This document shows, piece after piece, positions 6,425 through 18,484 of a stretch of DNA of 44,843 nt; position 1 is the first letter of the stretch, and each line of letters begins with the position of its first letter. The notes below the pieces were generated by a model. The model had not been told where the DNA came from. It was given only the letters and a program-made list of their open reading frames with translations, and did no database searches. The position numbers and the translations under genes were made by a program. The stretch lies in contig JBAWVS010000019.1 in assembly GCA_037147175.1 (NCBI GenBank), positions 1-44,843 on the forward strand, in the 5' to 3' direction. The DNA comes from a bacterium. Lineage in GTDB: Bacteria; Cyanobacteriota; Vampirovibrionia; Gastranaerophilales; UBA9971.

Positions 6425-8296
6425 ATGAGATACAAAAAATTATTAAACATATTATTGATTATAGGGATTATGGGCTTTGGGCTGAAATCCTGTATAAATG
6501 CTGACATTCCCGAAATTATAAAAAATAAAATTAAAACTGAAAGTTCACTTAAAATTGCTGATAAGCAACTTGCACCCTTCAAAACTGTTGTAATTAACGG
6601 TGTTGAATATCGTCAGGCAAGAGGCGAAATCGGGAAATATGGCGGAACTTTGTATTCCTCAAGTATAGGAGAAGGACCAAAAACTTTTAATCCGTGGGAT
6701 TCAACTGATGCAACGTCTTCTTTAATGGGCGAAATGATGTTTGACGGGCTCGTATCAACTGATGCATACACAGGTCAGGTTATTCCTCTTATTGCAAAAT
6801 CGGTTAAAATTGATAAAACCGGCTGTATTTATACTATAGAATTAAGAAAAGGTTTAAAATGGTCTGATGGTTTCCCAATTACCTCGGATGATGTTGTATT
6901 TACGTGGAAAGACATTATAGCAAACGGATTTGGTAATACAAGCATGCTCGATAATGCCTTAATTAACGGAAAAGCTCCGGAGGTAAAAGCTATTGACAAA
7001 TATAAGGTGCAGTTTACAACTTCGCAGCCGTTTGCCCCGTTTTTAAGACAGCTGAGCCAGAGCATTGCCCCAAAACACATACTTGCGCCTATTGTAAAAA
7101 AAGGCAAAAAAGAATTTAATTCTTTCTGGGGGGTAATAACACCGCCAGATAAATTTGTAACCAGCGGAATGTTTAAGCTTTCCAGATATATTCCAGCCCA
7201 AAGAGTAGAATTTGTACGTAATCCCGATTATTATATGGTGGATAAAAAAGGTCAAAAGCTTCCTTATCTTGATAAATATATTATTTATATTGTAGGAGAT
7301 TTAAATAATCAGGTTCTCAAATTTGAAGCAAAGCAGCTTGATATGATTACTCTTAACGGTGCTGACGTGGCAAGATTCAAAGAAATGGAGAAAAAATCTG
7401 ATTATAAAGTCTATAACCTTGGGCCTGACACAGGAACTATGTTTTTGTCGTTTAATCTCAACACCAGAAAAAATGCAGACGGACAATATTACGTGGACCC
7501 GATTAAACAGAAGTGGTTCGGCGATAAAAACTTTAGAAAAGCTGTCAGTCTTTCTATAGACAGAGAAAGCATTGTAATTAATATTTTAAGAGGAGTCGGT
7601 GCGCCCCTTTATACAGCAGAAAGCCTGTCTTCAATTTTTTTAAATCAAAAACTTAAAAACGGAGAACCGAGAAATCCCGATAAAGCAAGGAAATTACTTA
7701 AAGAATCAGGGTTTTACCGGAGCAGTACAGGGCAACTTTACGATAAAACAGGACACAAAGTTGAATTTAATTTGTCTACAAACGCAGGAAACACTGAAAG
7801 AGAATCCGTAGGCGTTATGCTCAAACAGGATCTTGAAGAACTCGGGATTCAAGTTAATTTCAAGCCTATAGAGTTTAATGTACTGGTTGGAAAACTTGTT
7901 GATTCACTAGATTGGGATGCGGTTGTAATGGGGCTTACAGGAAGTCCTCTGGAGCCGCATGGCGGAAGAAATGTATGGAGCAGTACAGGTACGCTCCACA
8001 TGTTTAATCAGAGAAAAGGAAAAGACTTAATACACCCCAAAGATACTTTGCCATGGGAAAAAGAAATTGATACAATCTTCGAAGACGGTGCTAAAACAGT
8101 TGATTTTAAGAAACGAAAACAAATTTACGATAAATATCAAGAAATTGTATGGATTAACAACCCTTTTATTTATATTTATTCGCCTTTAAGGGTTTATGCC
8201 GTCAGAAACAAATTTGGCAATATGAATCCGACTTCTCTTGGTGGAGTTACACACAATTTAGAAGAAATTTATGTGAAAAATAATAGTGATAAATAA
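6425..8296 (+). CDS. Family 5 ABC transporter substrate-binding lipoprotein (peptide-type)
   Basis: A 623-residue solute-binding protein of the SBP_bac_5 (peptide/nickel) family. The N-terminus has a basic start, a hydrophobic stretch (residues 8-20) and a lipobox-like LKSC with Cys23; Lys at -2 is unusual. The family core is clear: PKTFNPWDSTDATSS, then VFTWKDI, a FRKAVSLSIDRESIV block and DPDKARKLLKESGF-like features further on. At over 600 residues it belongs to the larger YejA/AppA-like members. It is the first gene of a set with two permeases (8319, 9292). Likely substrates are oligopeptides; specificity cannot be read from the sequence. Confidence 0.9.
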   Translation: MRYKKLLNILLIIGIMGFGLKSCINADIPEIIKNKIKTESSLKIADKQLAPFKTVVINGVEYRQARGEIGKYGGTLYSSSIGEGPKTFNPWDSTDATSSLMGEMMFDGLVSTDAYTGQVIPLIAKSVKIDKTGCIYTIELRKGLKWSDGFPITSDDVVFTWKDIIANGFGNTSMLDNALINGKAPEVKAIDKYKVQFTTSQPFAPFLRQLSQSIAPKHILAPIVKKGKKEFNSFWGVITPPDKFVTSGMFKLSRYIPAQRVEFVRNPDYYMVDKKGQKLPYLDKYIIYIVGDLNNQVLKFEAKQLDMITLNGADVARFKEMEKKSDYKVYNLGPDTGTMFLSFNLNTRKNADGQYYVDPIKQKWFGDKNFRKAVSLSIDRESIVINILRGVGAPLYTAESLSSIFLNQKLKNGEPRNPDKARKLLKESGFYRSSTGQLYDKTGHKVEFNLSTNAGNTERESVGVMLKQDLEELGIQVNFKPIEFNVLVGKLVDSLDWDAVVMGLTGSPLEPHGGRNVWSSTGTLHMFNQRKGKDLIHPKDTLPWEKEIDTIFEDGAKTVDFKKRKQIYDKYQEIVWINNPFIYIYSPLRVYAVRNKFGNMNPTSLGGVTHNLEEIYVKNNSDK

Positions 8297-8318
8297 AAAA
8301 TCGACAGAAAGAAAATAA

Positions 8319-9287
8319 ATGTCCTTACCTGTTTATATACTGAAAAGAATATTACAAGCAATACCATTGTTGATTATTGTGTCAATAATGAGCTTTATAA
8401 TCATTAAGTTAAGCCCCGTTGATCCACTTGCAGAACTAAAGCTAAATCCTGCTATTTCCCCACAGGTTTTACAGGCAGAAAAACAAAGGCTGGGTCTTGA
8501 TTTACCTGTTTATAAACAATATTTCAACTGGGTAGGAAATTTTGTTAAAGGAGATCTGGGTGTTTCTACTTCGGGGGAAAAAGTAGCAGACAGATTAATG
8601 GAAAGAATACCGAACACACTGCTTTTAACAATTTCAGTCATAATTATTACGTGGTTAATTGCGATTCCTCTGGGAATTTATGCTGCACTACATTGGAAGT
8701 CGAGTTTTGACAGATTATTAACAGTAATTTCTTCAATGGGGATGGCAGTTCCTACATTTTTCTTTGCTTTACTGCTGCTGATTTTTGCGGTTAAAACAGG
8801 TTGGTTTCCCGTTGGAGGACTTACCAGCGTAGGATTTGAAAATTTTAATCCTGTCCATAAATTTTTGGATATAGCGCATCACCTTGTTTTGCCTGTAATT
8901 GTCTTAACAACCGCAAGCCTTGCAGGTTTACAAAGGCAAATGAGAGGAAATCTTCTAGATGTTCTCGAATCAGACTACGTAAAAATGGCTAGAGCAAAGG
9001 GGCTTCCCGAAAACATAGTTATCTACAAACATGCGGTAAGAAATGCAATAAACCCTATGGTTACTCTATTAGGCTTTGAGTTTGCTTCTCTTTTAAGTGG
9101 AGCAGCGCTTACAGAATTTGTTCTTCAATATCCCGGTCTTGGCAGATTAATGCTGGAAGCTGTTATGAAGTCAGACATCAATCTGGTTATGGCTTCTCTT
9201 ATAATTGGAACTTTAATGCTCATTGCAGGTAATCTTATAGCGGATATACTTTTGAAATTTATTGACCCCCGCGTTAGTTTGGATTAA
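8319..9287 (+). CDS. Peptide-type ABC transporter permease (DppB/OppB family)
   Basis: A 322-residue inner-membrane permease with about six transmembrane helices. The N-terminal helix (YILKRILQAIPLLIIVSIMSFIIIKL) and the following DPLAE region are typical of DppB. The EAA loop that contacts the ATPase reads DYVKMARAKGLPENIVIYKHAVRN near residues 220-240, and the C-terminus ends in FIDPRVSLD as expected. It follows the binding protein by 22 nt and precedes the second permease by 4 nt, so the three form one operon. Confidence 0.93.
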   Translation: MSLPVYILKRILQAIPLLIIVSIMSFIIIKLSPVDPLAELKLNPAISPQVLQAEKQRLGLDLPVYKQYFNWVGNFVKGDLGVSTSGEKVADRLMERIPNTLLLTISVIIITWLIAIPLGIYAALHWKSSFDRLLTVISSMGMAVPTFFFALLLLIFAVKTGWFPVGGLTSVGFENFNPVHKFLDIAHHLVLPVIVLTTASLAGLQRQMRGNLLDVLESDYVKMARAKGLPENIVIYKHAVRNAINPMVTLLGFEFASLLSGAALTEFVLQYPGLGRLMLEAVMKSDINLVMASLIIGTLMLIAGNLIADILLKFIDPRVSLD

Positions 9288-9291
9288 ATAT

Positions 9292-10386
9292 ATGAAAAAA
9301 TTTTTTAATAAATTGTCAAATAATAAATTTTATAAAAAACTCACTAAAGACAAGTTTGTGTTTATTTCTCTGCTTATCCTCTTCTTTCTTTATCTTTCTA
9401 TAACATTCGCGGGATTTTTTGCAACTTACGGAAAAATGTTCAGCGACAGAAGGCTTTCTTATGCTCCACCATCAAAAATATTCGTCATAGACCAAAATGG
9501 CAAACTTTCGCTGCCTTATACATACAATTATAAAAGAACCTTTAATCCTGAAAATTTTCAAATGGACTTTCAGCTTGACAGAAGCCAAAAATATTATCTG
9601 AGATTCTTTTCACAGGGGGATAAATACAAATTACTTAATCTTATTCCCTGTAAAACCCACCTTGTAACAGTAAATTCTCAGGGAAGACTCTTTCTGCTGG
9701 GCACTGATATAAACGGAAGAGATATTTTTTCCAGATTATTTTACGGTGGACAAATTTCTTTAACTATCGGCTTTCTTGCTTTATTGATTTCTTTTCCTAT
9801 AGGGCTTTTATATGGCGGAATAGCAGGGTATTTCGGAGGAGCTGTAGACAATTACATGATGCGTGTTGCGGAAGCTATTATGAGCATTCCAAGCTTTTAT
9901 CTGTTGATAAGTCTTGCGGCTATTTTACCTGCTAATATGACGAGTATTCAAAGATTTACACTTATTATCGCAATACTTGCATTTATAGGCTGGGCGGGAT
10001 TAAGCAGAGTAGTTCGAGGAATGGTTTTATCAATTAAAAATCAGGAATTTGTTGAAGCGGCAAAAGCAATAGGCGCAAGTCCTATGCGAATAATTATAAA
10101 GCATATCCTGCCTCAGACAGCTAGTTATGTAATAGTTGCAATAACATTAAGCGTACCGGGATATATTCTTGCAGAATCCGGCTTGAGTTTTTTAGGACTT
10201 GGCATTCAGCAGCCTGATGCCAGCTGGGGAAATATGCTTAAAGAAGCACAGGAATATATTAATGTGCTATATCGTCCATGGCTGCTGACTCCAGGGGTTT
10301 TAATCTTTATTACGGTACTTGCTTTTAATCTTGTAGGAGACGCTGTAAGAGACATCCTAGATCCGAAAAGTCGAGTTCGAAAATAG
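9292..10386 (+). CDS. Peptide-type ABC transporter permease (DppC/YejE family)
   Basis: Second permease subunit, 364 residues from the ATG at 9292. An in-frame TTG at 9262 would overlap dppB and has no better RBS. TM1 (about residues 24-45) is followed by an unusually long extracytoplasmic segment of about 90 residues before the family landmark GTDINGRDIFSRLFYGG. This resembles the YejE/AppC-like group. The EAA loop is EFVEAAKAIGASPMRIIIKHILPQ. SGLSFLGLGIQQPDASWG and the C-terminal DPKSR follow as in DppC. No ATPase genes follow, although family-5 importers need one or two; they must be encoded elsewhere. Confidence 0.92.
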   Translation: MKKFFNKLSNNKFYKKLTKDKFVFISLLILFFLYLSITFAGFFATYGKMFSDRRLSYAPPSKIFVIDQNGKLSLPYTYNYKRTFNPENFQMDFQLDRSQKYYLRFFSQGDKYKLLNLIPCKTHLVTVNSQGRLFLLGTDINGRDIFSRLFYGGQISLTIGFLALLISFPIGLLYGGIAGYFGGAVDNYMMRVAEAIMSIPSFYLLISLAAILPANMTSIQRFTLIIAILAFIGWAGLSRVVRGMVLSIKNQEFVEAAKAIGASPMRIIIKHILPQTASYVIVAITLSVPGYILAESGLSFLGLGIQQPDASWGNMLKEAQEYINVLYRPWLLTPGVLIFITVLAFNLVGDAVRDILDPKSRVRK

Positions 10387-10435: not shown

Positions 10436-10543
10436 ATATTTCAGGGATATAAATTAGAGATACAAAGTTGTGACATGGAAATTATTAGAATAAAAACAGA
10501 AATTGTTTATATTTAATAGAGATCAAAAGGAGATTTAAGCTTA

Positions 10544-11014
10544 ATGGATTATAAATGCACTGTTGAACTAAAAGGAGACCTGTTTGATTCTCTCAGGCTT
10601 ACTTCTGTGCTTGATGAAATAGCAGACAGTGATTCAACATGCAAAATTAAAGAACTTAAAATAGGTGAAACAAGAACAGAACCTTCTTATGCAAGAATAA
10701 AAATACGTTCCGAAAAGAAAAAAACCCTTGATGAGTTAATTAAAAGCTTAAAAAAATACAATGCTACTCCTGTCAAAATAGTTTACAGAAATATAGAGAT
10801 TCAGGGGCATATAGTAGATTCTTTAATTTTATCTAAAATACTCGATATGATATTTAACAGCAAAGCAAGATGTGAAATTCTGGAAACTAAAATAGGGGTG
10901 GAAAAAAAAGATTTTTCTTATGCAAAAATTAAAATTATTACTACAAACCAAAAAGATATGGATGATCTTTTAGAAAAATTGATTAAACAAGGCGCAGTCC
11001 TCATAGAACATTAA
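10544..11014 (+). CDS. Tandem LOR/SDH-N (Saccharop_dh_N-like) domain protein
   Basis: A 156-residue protein made of two copies of one domain, about residues 4-78 and 81-155, offset by 77. Matching landmarks are G11..DSLRL with G88..DSLIL, and the IGETRTEPSYARIKI block with IGVEKKDFSYAKIKI. From memory the pattern fits the LOR/SDH conserved N-terminal region (PF04455) found in archaeal ornithine cyclodeaminases and in the middle of cyanobacterial ArgZ/AgrE. Here the domain is duplicated and stands alone, without the catalytic NAD-binding part. The start has AAAAGGAG 11-12 nt upstream. The dihydrolase gene follows 26 nt later, so the two probably act together. A regulatory or amino-acid-binding role is an inference. 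Confidence 0.78.
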   Translation: MDYKCTVELKGDLFDSLRLTSVLDEIADSDSTCKIKELKIGETRTEPSYARIKIRSEKKKTLDELIKSLKKYNATPVKIVYRNIEIQGHIVDSLILSKILDMIFNSKARCEILETKIGVEKKDFSYAKIKIITTNQKDMDDLLEKLIKQGAVLIEH

Positions 11015-11040
11015 TTCGTATTTAAAAGGATTTAAAAAAT

Positions 11041-11844
11041 ATGACTGTTAAATTTTTAATGTGTCCGCCTGATTATTATAATAATATTGATTATGAAATA
11101 AATCCATGGATGAAAAAGGGTACAGGATGTGACAATAAAATTTCTGTTGAAAAGTGGAATGAATTAAAAAGCATTATAACAAATCTTGGCGCGGAAGTTT
11201 TGACAATGAAGGCTCAGCCGGGGCAGCCGGATATTATTTTTACAGCAAATGCGGCATTGATTTACAAGAATACCGCAGTAATAAGCAGATTTAGACCTTC
11301 TGAAAGACAGCCTGAAGAAAAGTTTTATGCTGATTGGCTTCAGAAACAAGGTTTTGATATTGAATATATTCCTGAAAACATGCATTTTGAAGGTGCAGGT
11401 GATGCTTTATTTTCGGGAGAAACTCTGTATTCAGGCTATATAACAAGAACTGATATAACTTCTCATACTTATATTGCTTATTTATCAAATTTAAAAATAA
11501 TTTCTCTTGAATTGGCTGATAAAAGATTTTATCACCTTGATACCTGCTTTTGCCCGCTTTCAGAAGGATATTTAATGTATTATCCGCCTGCCTTTGATGA
11601 ATACGCAAATAAAATTATCGAAAAAGATTTTCCTGAAGAAAAACGCATTATAGTTACAGAAAATGAAGCAATGGGATTTTGTTGCAATGCTGTCAATATT
11701 GACAGGTCTGTAATAATGAACAATACAACTGACAGATTGAAAAACGAGCTGAAAGAAAAAGGATTTGACTCCTACGAAGTCGATTTATCGGAATTTATTA
11801 AAGCAGGCGGTTCAGCCAAATGCTTAACTCTCAGGCTTAATTAA
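11041..11844 (+). CDS. argZ: ArgZ-like arginine dihydrolase (stand-alone catalytic domain)
   Basis: A 267-residue protein of the amidinotransferase/guanidino-modifying superfamily. It resembles the N-terminal domain of cyanobacterial ArgZ/AgrE, which converts arginine to ornithine, CO2 and two ammonia. Landmarks: MCPPDYY, INPWM (Asn21), FTANAAL (Asn70), HFEGAGDAL, FYHLDTCFCPL with the catalytic His, and the catalytic Cys261 in GGSAKCLTLR. Asn21 and Asn70 correspond to positions linked with dihydrolase rather than deiminase activity in the cyanobacterial enzyme (from memory). The C-terminal LOR/SDH and cyclodeaminase parts of ArgZ are missing; a related domain is encoded separately just upstream. 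Arginine deiminase or dimethylargininase activity is a less likely alternative. Confidence 0.85.
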   Translation: MTVKFLMCPPDYYNNIDYEINPWMKKGTGCDNKISVEKWNELKSIITNLGAEVLTMKAQPGQPDIIFTANAALIYKNTAVISRFRPSERQPEEKFYADWLQKQGFDIEYIPENMHFEGAGDALFSGETLYSGYITRTDITSHTYIAYLSNLKIISLELADKRFYHLDTCFCPLSEGYLMYYPPAFDEYANKIIEKDFPEEKRIIVTENEAMGFCCNAVNIDRSVIMNNTTDRLKNELKEKGFDSYEVDLSEFIKAGGSAKCLTLRLN

Positions 11845-14471: not shown

Positions 14472-15572
14472 ATGGTAAAAAAACTTATTACAGAAGACAC
14501 AAAATTATTTATGACGGGCAATGAAGTCATTGCTTATGCGGCAGTGGCAGCCGGTGCAGAGTTTATGTACGGTTATCCGATTACACCTCAAAACGAAATT
14601 ATGCACACTTGGTGTAAATTACTCCCTAAAACAGAAGCCGGCTTTTTGCAGACAGAAGATGAGATCTCAGCCGGTTTTTCTACGTTAGGCGGTATTTTAG
14701 TCGGTAAAAAAGCTTTTACAGCAACAGCAGGTCCGGGAAACGTTATTATGCAAGACGCTATGTCAATGGCTGAAATGATGAGAATTCCTTTTGTATGCGC
14801 AGTTATGCAAAGAGGTGGACCTAGCACAGCTACAGTTATTTATGCACAACAAGAAACAACTTTAACATGTTTTGGCGGCAACGGTGAAGGACACAGAATT
14901 GTTTATTCAACCGCGGGTCACCAGGATTTATACGACTATACAATCAAAGCTTTCAACACAGCATGGAAACACAGATTTCCTACTTTCATTTTAGCTGACG
15001 GATATCAGGGCAAAATGAGAGAACCTGTAGTGGCTTATGATCCGGCTTCCAGAGGAATCGAAATGCTTCCTGCTGTTCCTACATTAAGAGGCGACGGCAA
15101 AATCGGTGTTGACAGAAAATCTGTACACATCAGAAATACTTTCAACCTTGAAGAAGAACTTATGGAAGTTCTTGATTCTTACGAAGCAGAATTCAACAAA
15201 ATAGCTCCTGAAATTGCAGAATTTAAAGAATATAAAGCTGAAGACGCCGATATTCTTATCATAGCACACGGAATCGTAGCAAGAAGTGCTATGACAGCTA
15301 TTGATATTTTAAGAGCAAGAGGAATTAAAGCAGGTTTATTCAGACCAATTACAGTTAGACCTCTGGCTGTACCTGCATTAAGAAAAGCTTGTGACAGAGC
15401 GAAGAAAATTCTCTTTACCGAATCAGCTAACGGTCAGCTTGCAAGAATGGTTCTTAAAGAAATTTACGGCTGCACAACACCTTATGACACATTATATAAA
15501 ATGGGCGTCGGTGTAACAGGGGATGATCTCGTAAACAAGGTTGAATCTATGTCAGAAACCTTAGTTTGCTAG
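14472..15572 (+). CDS. korA: 2-oxoacid:ferredoxin oxidoreductase, alpha subunit (KorA/VorB type)
   Basis: Alpha subunit (366 residues) of a CoA-dependent 2-oxoacid:ferredoxin oxidoreductase, which oxidatively decarboxylates a 2-oxoacid to its acyl-CoA and reduces ferredoxin. The N-terminus GNEVIAYAAVAAGAEFMYGYPITPQNE is the family signature. TATAGPGNVIMQDAMSMAEM and MQRGGPST follow, and domain II starts near residue 255 (DADILIIAHGIVARSA). The segment after QRGGPST differs from typical KorA, so 2-oxoglutarate, branched-chain oxoacids or pyruvate remain possible substrates. It is the first gene of an alpha-beta-gamma-delta cluster. A 159-bp gap to the beta gene contains a degenerate inverted repeat. 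Confidence 0.9.
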   Translation: MVKKLITEDTKLFMTGNEVIAYAAVAAGAEFMYGYPITPQNEIMHTWCKLLPKTEAGFLQTEDEISAGFSTLGGILVGKKAFTATAGPGNVIMQDAMSMAEMMRIPFVCAVMQRGGPSTATVIYAQQETTLTCFGGNGEGHRIVYSTAGHQDLYDYTIKAFNTAWKHRFPTFILADGYQGKMREPVVAYDPASRGIEMLPAVPTLRGDGKIGVDRKSVHIRNTFNLEEELMEVLDSYEAEFNKIAPEIAEFKEYKAEDADILIIAHGIVARSAMTAIDILRARGIKAGLFRPITVRPLAVPALRKACDRAKKILFTESANGQLARMVLKEIYGCTTPYDTLYKMGVGVTGDDLVNKVESMSETLVC

Positions 15573-15586
15573 ATATAACAATTAAT

Positions 15587-15687
15587 TGTCATTGCAAGTA
15601 AGTGTTAAACACAGAACTGGCAATCTTTTCAAAATGTTTTTACTTTATACGCAAATGGAAAGGTGCTGAATTAATTTCAGAATGACA
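15587..15687. repeat. Possible degenerate palindromic intergenic repeat
   Basis: Within the korA-korB gap, TGTCATT (15587-15593) is mirrored by AATGACA (15681-15687), with CATTGCAAG near the left end and GGCAATCTTTT inside. This layout recalls the GTCATTGC...AATGAC palindromic repeats dispersed in many bacterial genomes, but the internal arms have decayed. No second copy was noticed in this window, so the call is weak. Confidence 0.3.
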
Positions 15688-15731
15688 AAAAAGACAATAA
15701 ATAAACAATATTATAGGAGAATAAATAAAAT

Positions 15732-16499
15732 ATGCCAGAATTATTAACATTACCTCCAAGACTGCCGAAAGCGCAAAATGAAGAAGTCGGAGCAAGCAAA
15801 TTTTGCCCCGGTTGCGGTCACGGTATGATATTAAAGACTTTAGCATTTGCCATAGATGAAATGGAATTAAAAGATAAAACCGTTTTTGGCTGTGATATAG
15901 GATGCAGCTTATTAGCGTGGAATTTTCTTGATGTAGATACAGTTCAGACACACCACGGAAGAACAACACCAGTTATTTACGGTGTAGTAAGAGCAAGACC
16001 TGAAATTGTAGGAATTGCTTATATGGGAGACGGCGGTGGTCTTGCTATCGGTGCTCAGCATTTGGTAAACGCTGCTGTTAGAAACGAAAAAATGTTTGCC
16101 ATACTTGTGAACAACACAAATTATGGTATGACAGGCGGGCAAATGGCTCCAACCACATTGCCGGGACAAGTTACAGAAACAACTCCTTATGGAAGAGACC
16201 CTGAAACAACCGGCAAACCTGCAAAAGGTGCTGAAATGGTAGCTGCTATCGTTGATACAGACAAAGCTTATGTTGCAAGAGCAACTTGCAGCAATCTAAG
16301 ATCATTAAAAACTACCTTCAAAAAAGCTCTTACCAACGTATCTGAAGGCAGAGGCTTCTCGTTTGTTGAAGTTCTTTCAATCTGTCCGTTAAACTGGAGA
16401 ACTAATAATGTTCAAACATTTGAAAGACTTAAAACAATGGAAGATTACTTTAAAGTAGGTGAATTGGTTGTTCCTCAAGGACTGGAAGGAGTTAAGTAA
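15732..16499 (+). CDS. korB: 2-oxoacid:ferredoxin oxidoreductase, beta subunit (TPP-binding)
   Basis: Catalytic thiamine-diphosphate subunit, 255 residues. FCPGCGHG near the N-terminus and GCDIGCSLL are family motifs. The TPP/Mg signature is GDGGGLAIGAQHLVNAAVRNEKMFAILVNN cut into its two halves GDGGG and NN. NYGMTGGQMAPTT follows as in KorB. The RBS is AGGAG before ATAAATAAAAT-ATG. The stop codon overlaps the start of korC by one base (TAATG), so translation is coupled. The Cys residues near the N-terminus may contribute to an Fe-S centre, as in related enzymes. Confidence 0.93.
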   Translation: MPELLTLPPRLPKAQNEEVGASKFCPGCGHGMILKTLAFAIDEMELKDKTVFGCDIGCSLLAWNFLDVDTVQTHHGRTTPVIYGVVRARPEIVGIAYMGDGGGLAIGAQHLVNAAVRNEKMFAILVNNTNYGMTGGQMAPTTLPGQVTETTPYGRDPETTGKPAKGAEMVAAIVDTDKAYVARATCSNLRSLKTTFKKALTNVSEGRGFSFVEVLSICPLNWRTNNVQTFERLKTMEDYFKVGELVVPQGLEGVK

Positions 16500-17062
16500 T
16501 GTCAAGAACAAAAATAGTACTAGCTGGAGAAGGCGGACACGGTGTGCAGAGTGTTGCAAAAATACTTGTAGAAGCGGGATATGCTGCTGATAAAAATGTT
16601 TTATATATTCCTAACTTTGGTGTAGAGCAAAGAGGCGGAGTAAGTATTGCATTTTGCCAGATTGCTGACGAAGAAATAGGCGAACCAAGATTCTCAAAAG
16701 GTGACATTGTAATTATGTTATCTGACAGGGCTATTGAACGCTGCTCAACTTATGTAGACGAGAATACAACTGTTATATATGACAGTTCAATTTGTAATAC
16801 AAAACCTGTAATGAAAGCAAAAGAAATCATTGATATTCGTGCTAACAAATTAGCTCATGATGAGCTTACTTCAAGAGTTTTCAACATAATAATTCTTGGT
16901 GCAGTTATTAAAGCAACAAATGTTATTGATCTTCAATACGTAAAACAAGCTATGGAACAGGCACTTGGTAAAAAATTCACTGCTAAACCCGAATTAAGAG
17001 AACTTAATCATAAAGCTCTTGAAATGGGAATGGCGTTAATTCAAGCCAAAGCGGCTGTTTAA
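16499..17062 (+). CDS. korC: 2-oxoacid:ferredoxin oxidoreductase, gamma subunit
   Basis: Gamma subunit (187 residues). LAGEGGHGVQSVAKILVEAG matches the family glycine-rich start, followed by PNFGVEQRGGVSIAFCQI and the SDRAIERC segment. This subunit completes the oxidoreductase domain set and contributes to CoA binding. The start codon overlaps the korB stop. Downstream, 100 bp separate it from korD; that gap contains a 7-bp hairpin (AATATTG/CAATATT) that might mark an mRNA processing point. Confidence 0.92.
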   Translation: MSRTKIVLAGEGGHGVQSVAKILVEAGYAADKNVLYIPNFGVEQRGGVSIAFCQIADEEIGEPRFSKGDIVIMLSDRAIERCSTYVDENTTVIYDSSICNTKPVMKAKEIIDIRANKLAHDELTSRVFNIIILGAVIKATNVIDLQYVKQAMEQALGKKFTAKPELRELNHKALEMGMALIQAKAAV

Positions 17063-17162
17063 TAAACTTAAAATAATTTTATAATTATTTATGATTAATA
17101 TTGTGAAAAGCAATATTTGATCAAAGAACAGAAACCTATATAAACAAGGAGATAAAATTAAA

Positions 17163-17435
17163 ATGGTGGAAACTGCTTATAAAGGTATAAAAGTAGAAGG
17201 TTGCGGAAAAGGCAGAGCTACTTGGTACTTATACACTGATTTATGTAAAGGTTGCGGATTATGTATAGTAAAATGCCCGATCAACATAAAAGGTGAAAAA
17301 TGCTTACAGTGGTCAAATGAAGTTGGAATTTACATGACTCCTGCTGTGCAGCCTGATCCGACTTTATGTATTGCTTGCGGAACTTGCGAAATGATTTGTC
17401 CTGACAGCGCAATCAGAGTAGAAAAAAATAAATAA
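17163..17435 (+). CDS. korD: 2-oxoacid:ferredoxin oxidoreductase, delta (ferredoxin) subunit
   Basis: A 90-residue bacterial-type ferredoxin with two 4Fe-4S motifs. The first is CKGCGLCIVKCP (near residue 30) and the second CIACGTCEMICPDSAI (near residue 70), so all eight cluster Cys are present. An additional Cys lies between them. It passes electrons from the TPP centre to free ferredoxin. AAGGAG precedes the ATG by about 8 nt. The delta gene is often first in kor/por operons of other organisms; here it is last, and hydE follows 14 nt downstream. Confidence 0.93.
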   Translation: MVETAYKGIKVEGCGKGRATWYLYTDLCKGCGLCIVKCPINIKGEKCLQWSNEVGIYMTPAVQPDPTLCIACGTCEMICPDSAIRVEKNK

Positions 17436-17449
17436 ATTAGAAAAATTAA

Positions 17450-18484
17450 ATGAACTTTAAAGAAATAATTTACAAAGCAGAAAATACACACAATCTCACT
17501 AAAAATGAGATTGTGTGTATTCTTGCAAATGAGGATATAAACCAAGAGCTTTTCGAAGCTGCAGATAGAGTTAGAGAAAAATATGTCGGCAATGAAGTTC
17601 ATCTTAGGGGATTAATAGAATTTTCCAATATTTGTTCTAAAAATTGCTTTTACTGCGGGCTTAGAAGAGATAATAAAAATATCAAAAGATACAAGCTTGA
17701 GCCGGAAATTATAATAGATTTTGCCCAAAAAGCTGCATCTTACGGCTATAAAACTTTTGTATTGCAATCAGGAGAGGGCAATATCTACTCTCTTGAGGAA
17801 ATGATTTATATAATTTCTGAAATTAAAAAATTTGATGTAGCTATAACACTTAGCATTGGTGAAAAAACAGAAGAAGAATATCAATTATTCAAAAATGCAG
17901 GTGCAGACAGATTTCTTTTAAGAATAGAAACAACTGATAAAGAGCTATATAACAAACTTCACCCGGGAATGAGCCATGAAAACAGAATTAATTGCCTTAA
18001 AACCATAAAAAAACTTGGATATGAAACAGGAACAGGGTGTTTAATAGGTCTGCCCGACCAAACTATCGAATCACTGGCTGATGATATTTTGTTTTTTAAA
18101 GAACTTGGCGCTGATATGATAGGAGTTGGCCCTTTTATTCCTAATGAGGACACTCCTCTTAGTTCCGAAAAAGGCGGCGATTTTGAACTTGCTTTAAAAG
18201 TTATGGCGATTACAAGGCTTTTGCTCCCAGATATAAATATTCCGGCCACTACTGCAATGGAAACACTTAATCCTCAAGGAAGACTTATTGCTCTTCAAAG
18301 CGGTGCAAACGTTGTTATGCCAAATGTTACCGAAGGGGAATACAGAGCTTTATACAAGCTTTATCCGTGGAAAATTTGCATAAACGATTCGCCTATTCAT
18401 TGCAGAGGTTGCATTACAGGAAAAATTCACGGCATAGGAAGAACTGTATCAAAAGAGTGCGGATTTAGAAATAAAATAGACTAA
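17450..18484 (+). CDS. hydE: [FeFe] hydrogenase H-cluster radical SAM maturase HydE
   Basis: Radical SAM enzyme (344 residues) that helps build the diiron site of [FeFe] hydrogenase. The radical-SAM cysteines are Cys62, Cys66 and Cys69 (CSKNCFYC), in the HydE-type context HLRGLIEFSNIC. The C-terminal half has IGVGPFIPNEDTPL, TTAMETLNPQGR and NVVMPNVT, which match HydE better than biotin synthase. It follows korD by 14 nt and probably shares its transcript, which links H2 metabolism to ferredoxin reduction. HydF, HydG and the hydrogenase are not in the window. A perfect 16-bp inverted repeat covers codons 12-24. The RBS before the ATG is weak. Confidence 0.92.
   Translation: MNFKEIIYKAENTHNLTKNEIVCILANEDINQELFEAADRVREKYVGNEVHLRGLIEFSNICSKNCFYCGLRRDNKNIKRYKLEPEIIIDFAQKAASYGYKTFVLQSGEGNIYSLEEMIYIISEIKKFDVAITLSIGEKTEEEYQLFKNAGADRFLLRIETTDKELYNKLHPGMSHENRINCLKTIKKLGYETGTGCLIGLPDQTIESLADDILFFKELGADMIGVGPFIPNEDTPLSSEKGGDFELALKVMAITRLLLPDINIPATTAMETLNPQGRLIALQSGANVVMPNVTEGEYRALYKLYPWKICINDSPIHCRGCITGKIHGIGRTVSKECGFRNKID
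17483..17521 (+). promoter_or_regulatory. Perfect 16-bp hairpin inside the 5' end of hydE
   Basis: Left arm 17483-17498 (AATACACACAATCTCA), loop CTAAAAA, right arm 17506-17521, exactly complementary over 16 bp. It begins 33 nt after the hydE start codon and encodes residues from about 12 to 24. A stem this long and perfect inside coding sequence is unlikely by chance. It could slow ribosomes, separate hydE expression from korABCD, or bind a protein as DNA. It lacks a T-run, so it is not a standard terminator. Confidence 0.6.

What the first reader, a model, noticed from the sequence alone, without database searches (positions are those of the whole stretch)
10544..11844. Split and rearranged ArgZ/AgrE system: tandem LOR/SDH-N protein next to a stand-alone arginine dihydrolase
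Seen: a 156-residue protein made of two copies of one domain (offset 77 residues) is 26 nt upstream of a 267-residue enzyme with ArgZ-type motifs (FYHLDTCFCPL, catalytic Cys261). Known: in cyanobacterial ArgZ/AgrE the dihydrolase is followed in the same chain by an LOR/SDH-type region, and in AgrE by an ornithine cyclodeaminase. Here the order is reversed, the small domain is duplicated, and the catalytic cyclodeaminase part is missing. Inference: the tandem protein may be a stand-alone regulator, ornithine/arginine sensor or scaffold for the dihydrolase. That would be an undescribed architecture and perhaps an ancestral or dismantled form of ArgZ.
Basis: partly seen in the sequence, partly recalled or inferred. 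Interest (0 to 1): 0.78.

Follow-up and report, generated by a model that had tools for sequence, protein, structure and literature searches.

The report
Enzyme fragment kept as dihydrolase partner
A small protein beside an arginine-degrading enzyme is what remains of a second enzyme whose catalytic part was lost; because the same remnant was kept in several unrelated bacterial lineages, it probably does a job of its own for the arginine enzyme, most likely regulation.

Summary
The 156-aa protein (10544-11014) is two PF04455 (LOR/SDH-N) domains, 64 and 69 bits against a cut-off of 23.5. The 267-aa protein (11041-11844) is closest to the ArgZ/AgrE arginine dihydrolase domain and keeps the ArgZ N71 and C264 equivalents. 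The evolutionary reading changes. In Verrucomicrobia, Planctomycetes, Chloroflexi and Armatimonadota the usual arrangement is a separate full ornithine cyclodeaminase (OCD, N-terminal LOR/SDH domain) directly upstream of a separate dihydrolase, so 'LOR/SDH before dihydrolase' is the common order and AgrE is a permuted fusion. In the window's class the OCD catalytic part is gone from the genomes searched; the LOR/SDH domain remains next to the dihydrolase in 17 genomes, is duplicated in the window's lineage and is fused to the dihydrolase in one genome. Four Verrucomicrobia lost the same catalytic part separately (tree needs at least three events; AU p 7e-5 against one verrucomicrobial origin). 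The remnant is under purifying selection (dN/dS 0.03-0.17) and predicted to be ACT-like. Best reading: a regulatory or accessory subunit of the dihydrolase, with ornithine passed to ornithine aminotransferase in most of these bacteria. No binding or activity was tested.

The parts
10544..11014 (+). 156-aa tandem LOR/SDH-N (PF04455) protein; proposed accessory/regulatory subunit
10559..10774 (+). first PF04455 repeat; motif reads KGDLFDSL (the family's conserved His is Asp)
10784..11011 (+). second PF04455 repeat; intact motif QGHIVDSLxLxKxLD
10527..10533 (+). AAGGAGA, likely ribosome-binding site of the tandem gene
   Evidence: sequence printed
11024..11030 (+). AAAAGGA, likely ribosome-binding site of the dihydrolase gene
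   Evidence: sequence printed
11041..11844 (+). 267-aa stand-alone arginine dihydrolase (N70 = ArgZ N71, C261 = ArgZ C264)

Best explanation
The pair is an arginine dihydrolase plus the leftover N-terminal domain of an ornithine cyclodeaminase (OCD) that once stood directly upstream of it. The catalytic part of the OCD was deleted, while its ACT-like LOR/SDH-N domain was kept (and duplicated in this lineage) because it acts as a small accessory subunit of the dihydrolase, most likely an amino-acid-sensing regulatory or assembly subunit that works in the way IlvH works on acetohydroxyacid synthase. The dihydrolase turns arginine into ornithine, CO2 and two ammonia; in the own genome and most pair-bearing relatives ornithine is then handled by ornithine aminotransferase instead of OCD. 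Shown by sequence: domains, conserved pairing, absence of the OCD part, repeated independent truncation, purifying selection, presence of an ornithine aminotransferase gene. Inferred: the direction of change (deletion rather than gain), enzyme activity, physical contact, ligand and regulation.
For: PF04455 in both repeats. Dihydrolase nearest ArgZ/AgrE, catalytic residues invariant. Small gene directly upstream of the dihydrolase, same strand, in 17 genomes including the window; G014 has both genes at contig ends in the matching orientation. One natural fusion LOR/SDH-dihydrolase, G362 (L101). Full OCD directly upstream of the dihydrolase in four other phyla. No OCD catalytic part in 21 genomes of the class or in four Verrucomicrobia with the same truncation; a like downstream gene follows the pair in L107 (full OCD) and in the four truncated loci. 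The dihydrolase tree needs four changes for the small-only state, at least three on well-supported branches; one origin of the four verrucomicrobial cases is rejected, p-AU 6.7e-5. dN/dS of the small genes 0.03-0.17. Verrucomicrobial class: 21 of 21 PF04455 genomes carry the dihydrolase. Tandem model: two beta-alpha-beta-beta-alpha-beta units; Foldseek finds MJ1480, ArgZ/AgrE, then ACT regulatory subunits of acetohydroxyacid synthase and aspartate kinase. Ornithine aminotransferase in the own genome, 529 bits over the 378.4 cut-off, and a close homologue in 16 of 19 pair genomes.
Against: G015 and G020 (one genus) keep the small gene, under purifying selection, with no dihydrolase, so it can persist without that partner. 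The motif GHxxDSLxLxKxLD is also conserved in OCDs with no dihydrolase found within about 4 kb, so it is not specific to dihydrolase contact. The fusion model has a disordered linker (residues 78-101) and gives no trusted interface. Full-length fold matches to ACT proteins have TM only 0.33-0.43, and no ACT family matches by sequence. The ornithine aminotransferase link does not hold in G203, G272, G353 or in the four truncated Verrucomicrobia. The OCD-to-small direction is parsimony, not shown by the unrooted tree.
Confidence: 0.55

Rival explanations
1. The small protein is a free-standing amino-acid-binding regulator that acts elsewhere (for example on transport or gene expression) and shares only the operon with the dihydrolase.
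For: Kept under selection without the dihydrolase in G015/G020; motif shared with OCDs that have no dihydrolase nearby.
Against: Near-strict pairing in two phyla, natural fusion in G362, repeated retention exactly beside the dihydrolase.
Confidence: 0.2
2. The tandem protein is mainly a structural scaffold or oligomerisation subunit that holds dihydrolase subunits, or the dihydrolase and ornithine aminotransferase, together without sensing a ligand.
For: Duplicated and fused forms; ornithine aminotransferase gene close to the pair in G283, G023, G014 and G299.
Against: The aminotransferase gene is elsewhere in the own genome and absent from some pair genomes.
Confidence: 0.15
3. It is a dismantled AgrE/ArgZ: a fused cyanobacterial enzyme was split, reordered and stripped.
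For: Dihydrolases of this class group with AgrE dihydrolases (96 SH-aLRT).
Against: Would need splitting, reversal and loss, whereas the OCD-then-dihydrolase operon in four other phyla needs one deletion; the G362 fusion also has the operon order.
Confidence: 0.08
4. The small ORF is a vestige or a translational leader kept only to couple translation of the dihydrolase.
For: Short gaps or overlaps between the two genes in most genomes.
Against: Protein sequence under purifying selection, invariant residues over many genera, duplication and fusion of the coding sequence.
Confidence: 0.02

Closest known systems
AgrE (Anabaena) / ArgZ (Synechocystis), bifunctional arginine dihydrolase - ornithine cyclodeaminase (NF052231; PDB 6juy, 6lrf)
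   Same: Homologous dihydrolase with the same catalytic Asn and Cys; same LOR/SDH-type domain
   Different: Here separate genes, LOR/SDH first and duplicated, no cyclodeaminase catalytic part
OCD (TIGR00300) + separate dihydrolase operon of Verrucomicrobia, Planctomycetes, Chloroflexi and Armatimonadota (seen; not found described in the papers searched)
   Same: Same gene order; LOR/SDH domain at the start of the upstream gene
   Different: The window's upstream gene ends after the LOR/SDH domain and repeats it
PF04455 domain of MJ1480 (PDB 3mgj)
   Same: Best structural and sequence match of the small protein (E 1.3e-7 by Foldseek)
   Different: An excised domain: Methanocaldococcus loci carry it as the first part of a full OCD (423-427 aa)
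IlvH/IlvN and other tandem-ACT regulatory subunits (PDB 2f1f, 2dtj)
   Same: Two beta-alpha-beta-beta-alpha-beta units in a small protein; IlvH is an enzyme's regulatory subunit
   Different: No sequence family match, weak whole-chain TM; only a working analogy

Membership tests
PF04455 Saccharop_dh_N (LOR/SDH-N) | Score over the curated cut-off | tested here: met
   64.3 and 69.3 bits for the halves against 23.5
Ornithine cyclodeaminase TIGR00300 | Full-length match including catalytic region (positions ~100-407) | tested here: not met
   Only about positions 3-78 matched, 107 bits against 410.8; catalytic part absent from the genome
Bifunctional ArgZ/AgrE NF052231 | Dihydrolase and cyclodeaminase in one chain | tested here: not met
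   336 bits against 1025; two separate genes, no cyclodeaminase
Arginine dihydrolase NF052232 | Score over the curated cut-off | tested here: not met
   333.6 bits against 450, though it covers the whole model and is the best single-domain hit
Arginine dihydrolase NF052232 | ArgZ catalytic Asn71 and Cys264 equivalents | tested here: met
   Align with N70 and C261, invariant in 17 sequences; N71S and C264S are the mutants of PDB 6juz and 6jv1
Arginine dihydrolase NF052232 | Converts arginine to ornithine + 2 NH3 + CO2 | not testable with these tools
   Needs an enzyme assay
Dimethylargininase NF045659 | Score over the curated cut-off | tested here: not met
   248.7 bits against 300, weaker than the dihydrolase match
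ACT-domain regulatory subunit (IlvH type) | ACT sequence family match | tested here: not met
   No ACT family listed in the Pfam scan at E up to 10
ACT-domain regulatory subunit (IlvH type) | Tandem ACT-type fold | tested here: inconclusive
   Right secondary-structure order, Foldseek E 2e-5 to 2f1f, but TM 0.33-0.34

The most novel reading that the evidence does not exclude
PF04455 is a portable amino-acid-sensing regulatory domain: bacteria that lose ornithine cyclodeaminase keep just this domain, as a separate 75-aa or duplicated 156-aa subunit, to control arginine dihydrolase by the level of ornithine, arginine or proline, as IlvH controls acetohydroxyacid synthase.
Probability: 0.35. Interest if true: 0.72.

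Novelty: new variant of a known kind. Interest (0 to 1): 0.58.

Why it matters
No role for the LOR/SDH-N domain was found in the papers searched; [quoted passage not shown] that this exon is PF04455 was not checked). Here nature has removed the catalytic part several times and kept the domain next to one enzyme, giving small, separable proteins in which its function can be assayed directly. It also gives a plausible arginine-to-ornithine-to-glutamate-semialdehyde route for non-photosynthetic relatives of Cyanobacteria in place of AgrE.

Tried and rejected
Loss of OCD because its nickel-pincer cofactor is missing: LarC (PF01969) is present in 10 of 10 AgrE cyanobacteria tested and in 5 of 21 genomes of the class with the small gene, but also missing from 7 of 8 OCD genomes of other phyla, so it explains nothing safely. 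Peptide ABC transporter upstream as part of the system: neighbours the pair in the window's genus only. Ornithine aminotransferase as a general replacement: not in truncated Verrucomicrobia. L166 looked like a short form but is one OCD split over two frames. Papers on AgrE and ArgZ structures are not held; no paper found on the operon form. The Fisher test of dihydrolase against aminotransferase (12/0/2/46, p 6.5e-11) ignores relatedness and is not leaned on.

Full report
What is there. The two ORFs are as described. The 156-aa protein is two PF04455 domains that match the first ~77 positions of the ornithine cyclodeaminase model TIGR00300. The 267-aa protein is most like the dihydrolase domain of ArgZ (PDB 6jv0, E 3.5e-84); it scores 333.6 bits on the dihydrolase model NF052232, below the 450 cut-off, and 248.7 on a dimethylargininase model, also below cut-off. 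Residues equivalent to ArgZ N71 and C264 are invariant in 17 relatives; PDB holds N71S and C264S mutants of ArgZ in intermediate and substrate complexes.

The genome. G000 is 2.66 Mb, 99.4% complete. It has no other PF04455 and no OCD catalytic region. Public records of the nearest loci name them Cyanobacteria/Melainabacteria/Gastranaerophilales. It has an ornithine aminotransferase on another contig (529 bits, cut-off 378.4).

Relatives. In 17 genomes, the window included, a PF04455 gene lies immediately upstream of a stand-alone dihydrolase on the same strand. The small gene has one domain (about 75-84 aa) in most and two (156-161 aa) in G000, G001, G002, G004 and G018. In G014 the two genes sit at two contig ends in the orientation expected of neighbours. 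In G362, a genome of the same class, they are one 438-aa frame with LOR/SDH first, both domains confirmed. In G015 and G020 the small gene stands without a dihydrolase. In photosynthetic members of the phylum both domains lie in one frame of about 700 aa, the AgrE form.

Other phyla. A genome scan with the small-protein alignment gave 80 loci. In Verrucomicrobia, Planctomycetes, Chloroflexi and Armatimonadota the PF04455 domain is usually the start of a full OCD of about 410 aa, followed directly by a separate dihydrolase. This is the same gene order as in the window, so the window is best seen as that operon without the OCD catalytic part. Four verrucomicrobial loci (L113, L147, L150, L175) show the same truncation: a 79-83 aa LOR/SDH protein ending 3-12 nt before the dihydrolase, with a downstream gene like that of the full-OCD locus L107, and no OCD elsewhere in those genomes.

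How often. On the dihydrolase tree the small-only state needs four changes, at least three on well-supported branches. A smaller careful tree gives four changes over the 5-95% bootstrap range and rejects a single clade of the four verrucomicrobial cases (p-AU 6.7e-5). The tree is unrooted and the G362 branch is long, so the direction (loss of the catalytic part) rests on parsimony and on the wide spread of full OCDs, which is an inference.

Function. The small genes are constrained (dN/dS 0.03-0.17), including the verrucomicrobial pair L147/L150 and the dihydrolase-less G015/G020. AlphaFold2 gives two beta-alpha-beta-beta-alpha-beta units (pLDDT 80). Foldseek finds MJ1480 and ArgZ/AgrE first, then tandem-ACT regulatory proteins such as the small subunit of acetohydroxyacid synthase, at low whole-chain TM. 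ACT domains are known amino-acid sensors (own knowledge). Conservation of GHxxDSLxLxKxLD in small-only forms, OCD-operon forms and OCDs with no dihydrolase nearby fits a role common to all, such as binding a pathway amino acid, and not one tied to OCD catalysis. In the window's first repeat the His is Asp, so perhaps only one of its two sites is intact. The fusion model places no trusted interface because the linker is disordered. Regulation is therefore the favoured inference, not a result.

Pathway. A close ornithine aminotransferase homologue occurs in 16 of 19 pair genomes of the class, near the pair in some, next to proC in G362, while one of eight AgrE cyanobacteria tested has one. It is missing from G203, G272, G353 and from the truncated Verrucomicrobia, where ornithine must go elsewhere. 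In G203 a glutamine synthetase gene follows the pair. AgrE makes proline from arginine in cyanobacteria (PMC8262935); here the two steps appear to be handed to different enzymes.

Verdict. A real, conserved and selected two-gene unit; a new variant of the known arginine dihydrolase/OCD module, interesting because it isolates a domain whose job is unknown.

Noticed in passing
L094:8220-8447 and L095:7957-8184 (G015, G020): Small LOR/SDH-N gene kept under purifying selection in a genus with no dihydrolase and no ornithine aminotransferase over the cut-off; partner unknown.
   Followed up: partly
G412, G413, G414, G423, G508, G623, G748: Genomes with OCD that NCBIfam calls nickel-pincer-nucleotide-dependent have no detectable LarC, so the cofactor or its source there is unclear.
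   Followed up: no
G015, G020, G024: LarC-like matches with stop codons inside, reminiscent of split or frameshifted larC1/larC2.
   Followed up: no
G425, G434, G465, G584, G709, G752, G774: AgrE-like fusions of about 700-800 aa in the verrucomicrobial class, beside relatives with separate genes.
   Followed up: no
G168, G204: AgrE remnants with several stop codons, apparently decaying genes, in two cyanobacteria of one genus.
   Followed up: no
window 14472-18484: 2-oxoacid:acceptor oxidoreductase alpha, beta and gamma genes followed by a HydE-type [FeFe] hydrogenase maturase gene.
   Followed up: partly
window 6425-10386: Oligopeptide-type ABC transporter genes upstream of the pair; neighbours of the pair only in the window's genus.
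   Followed up: partly
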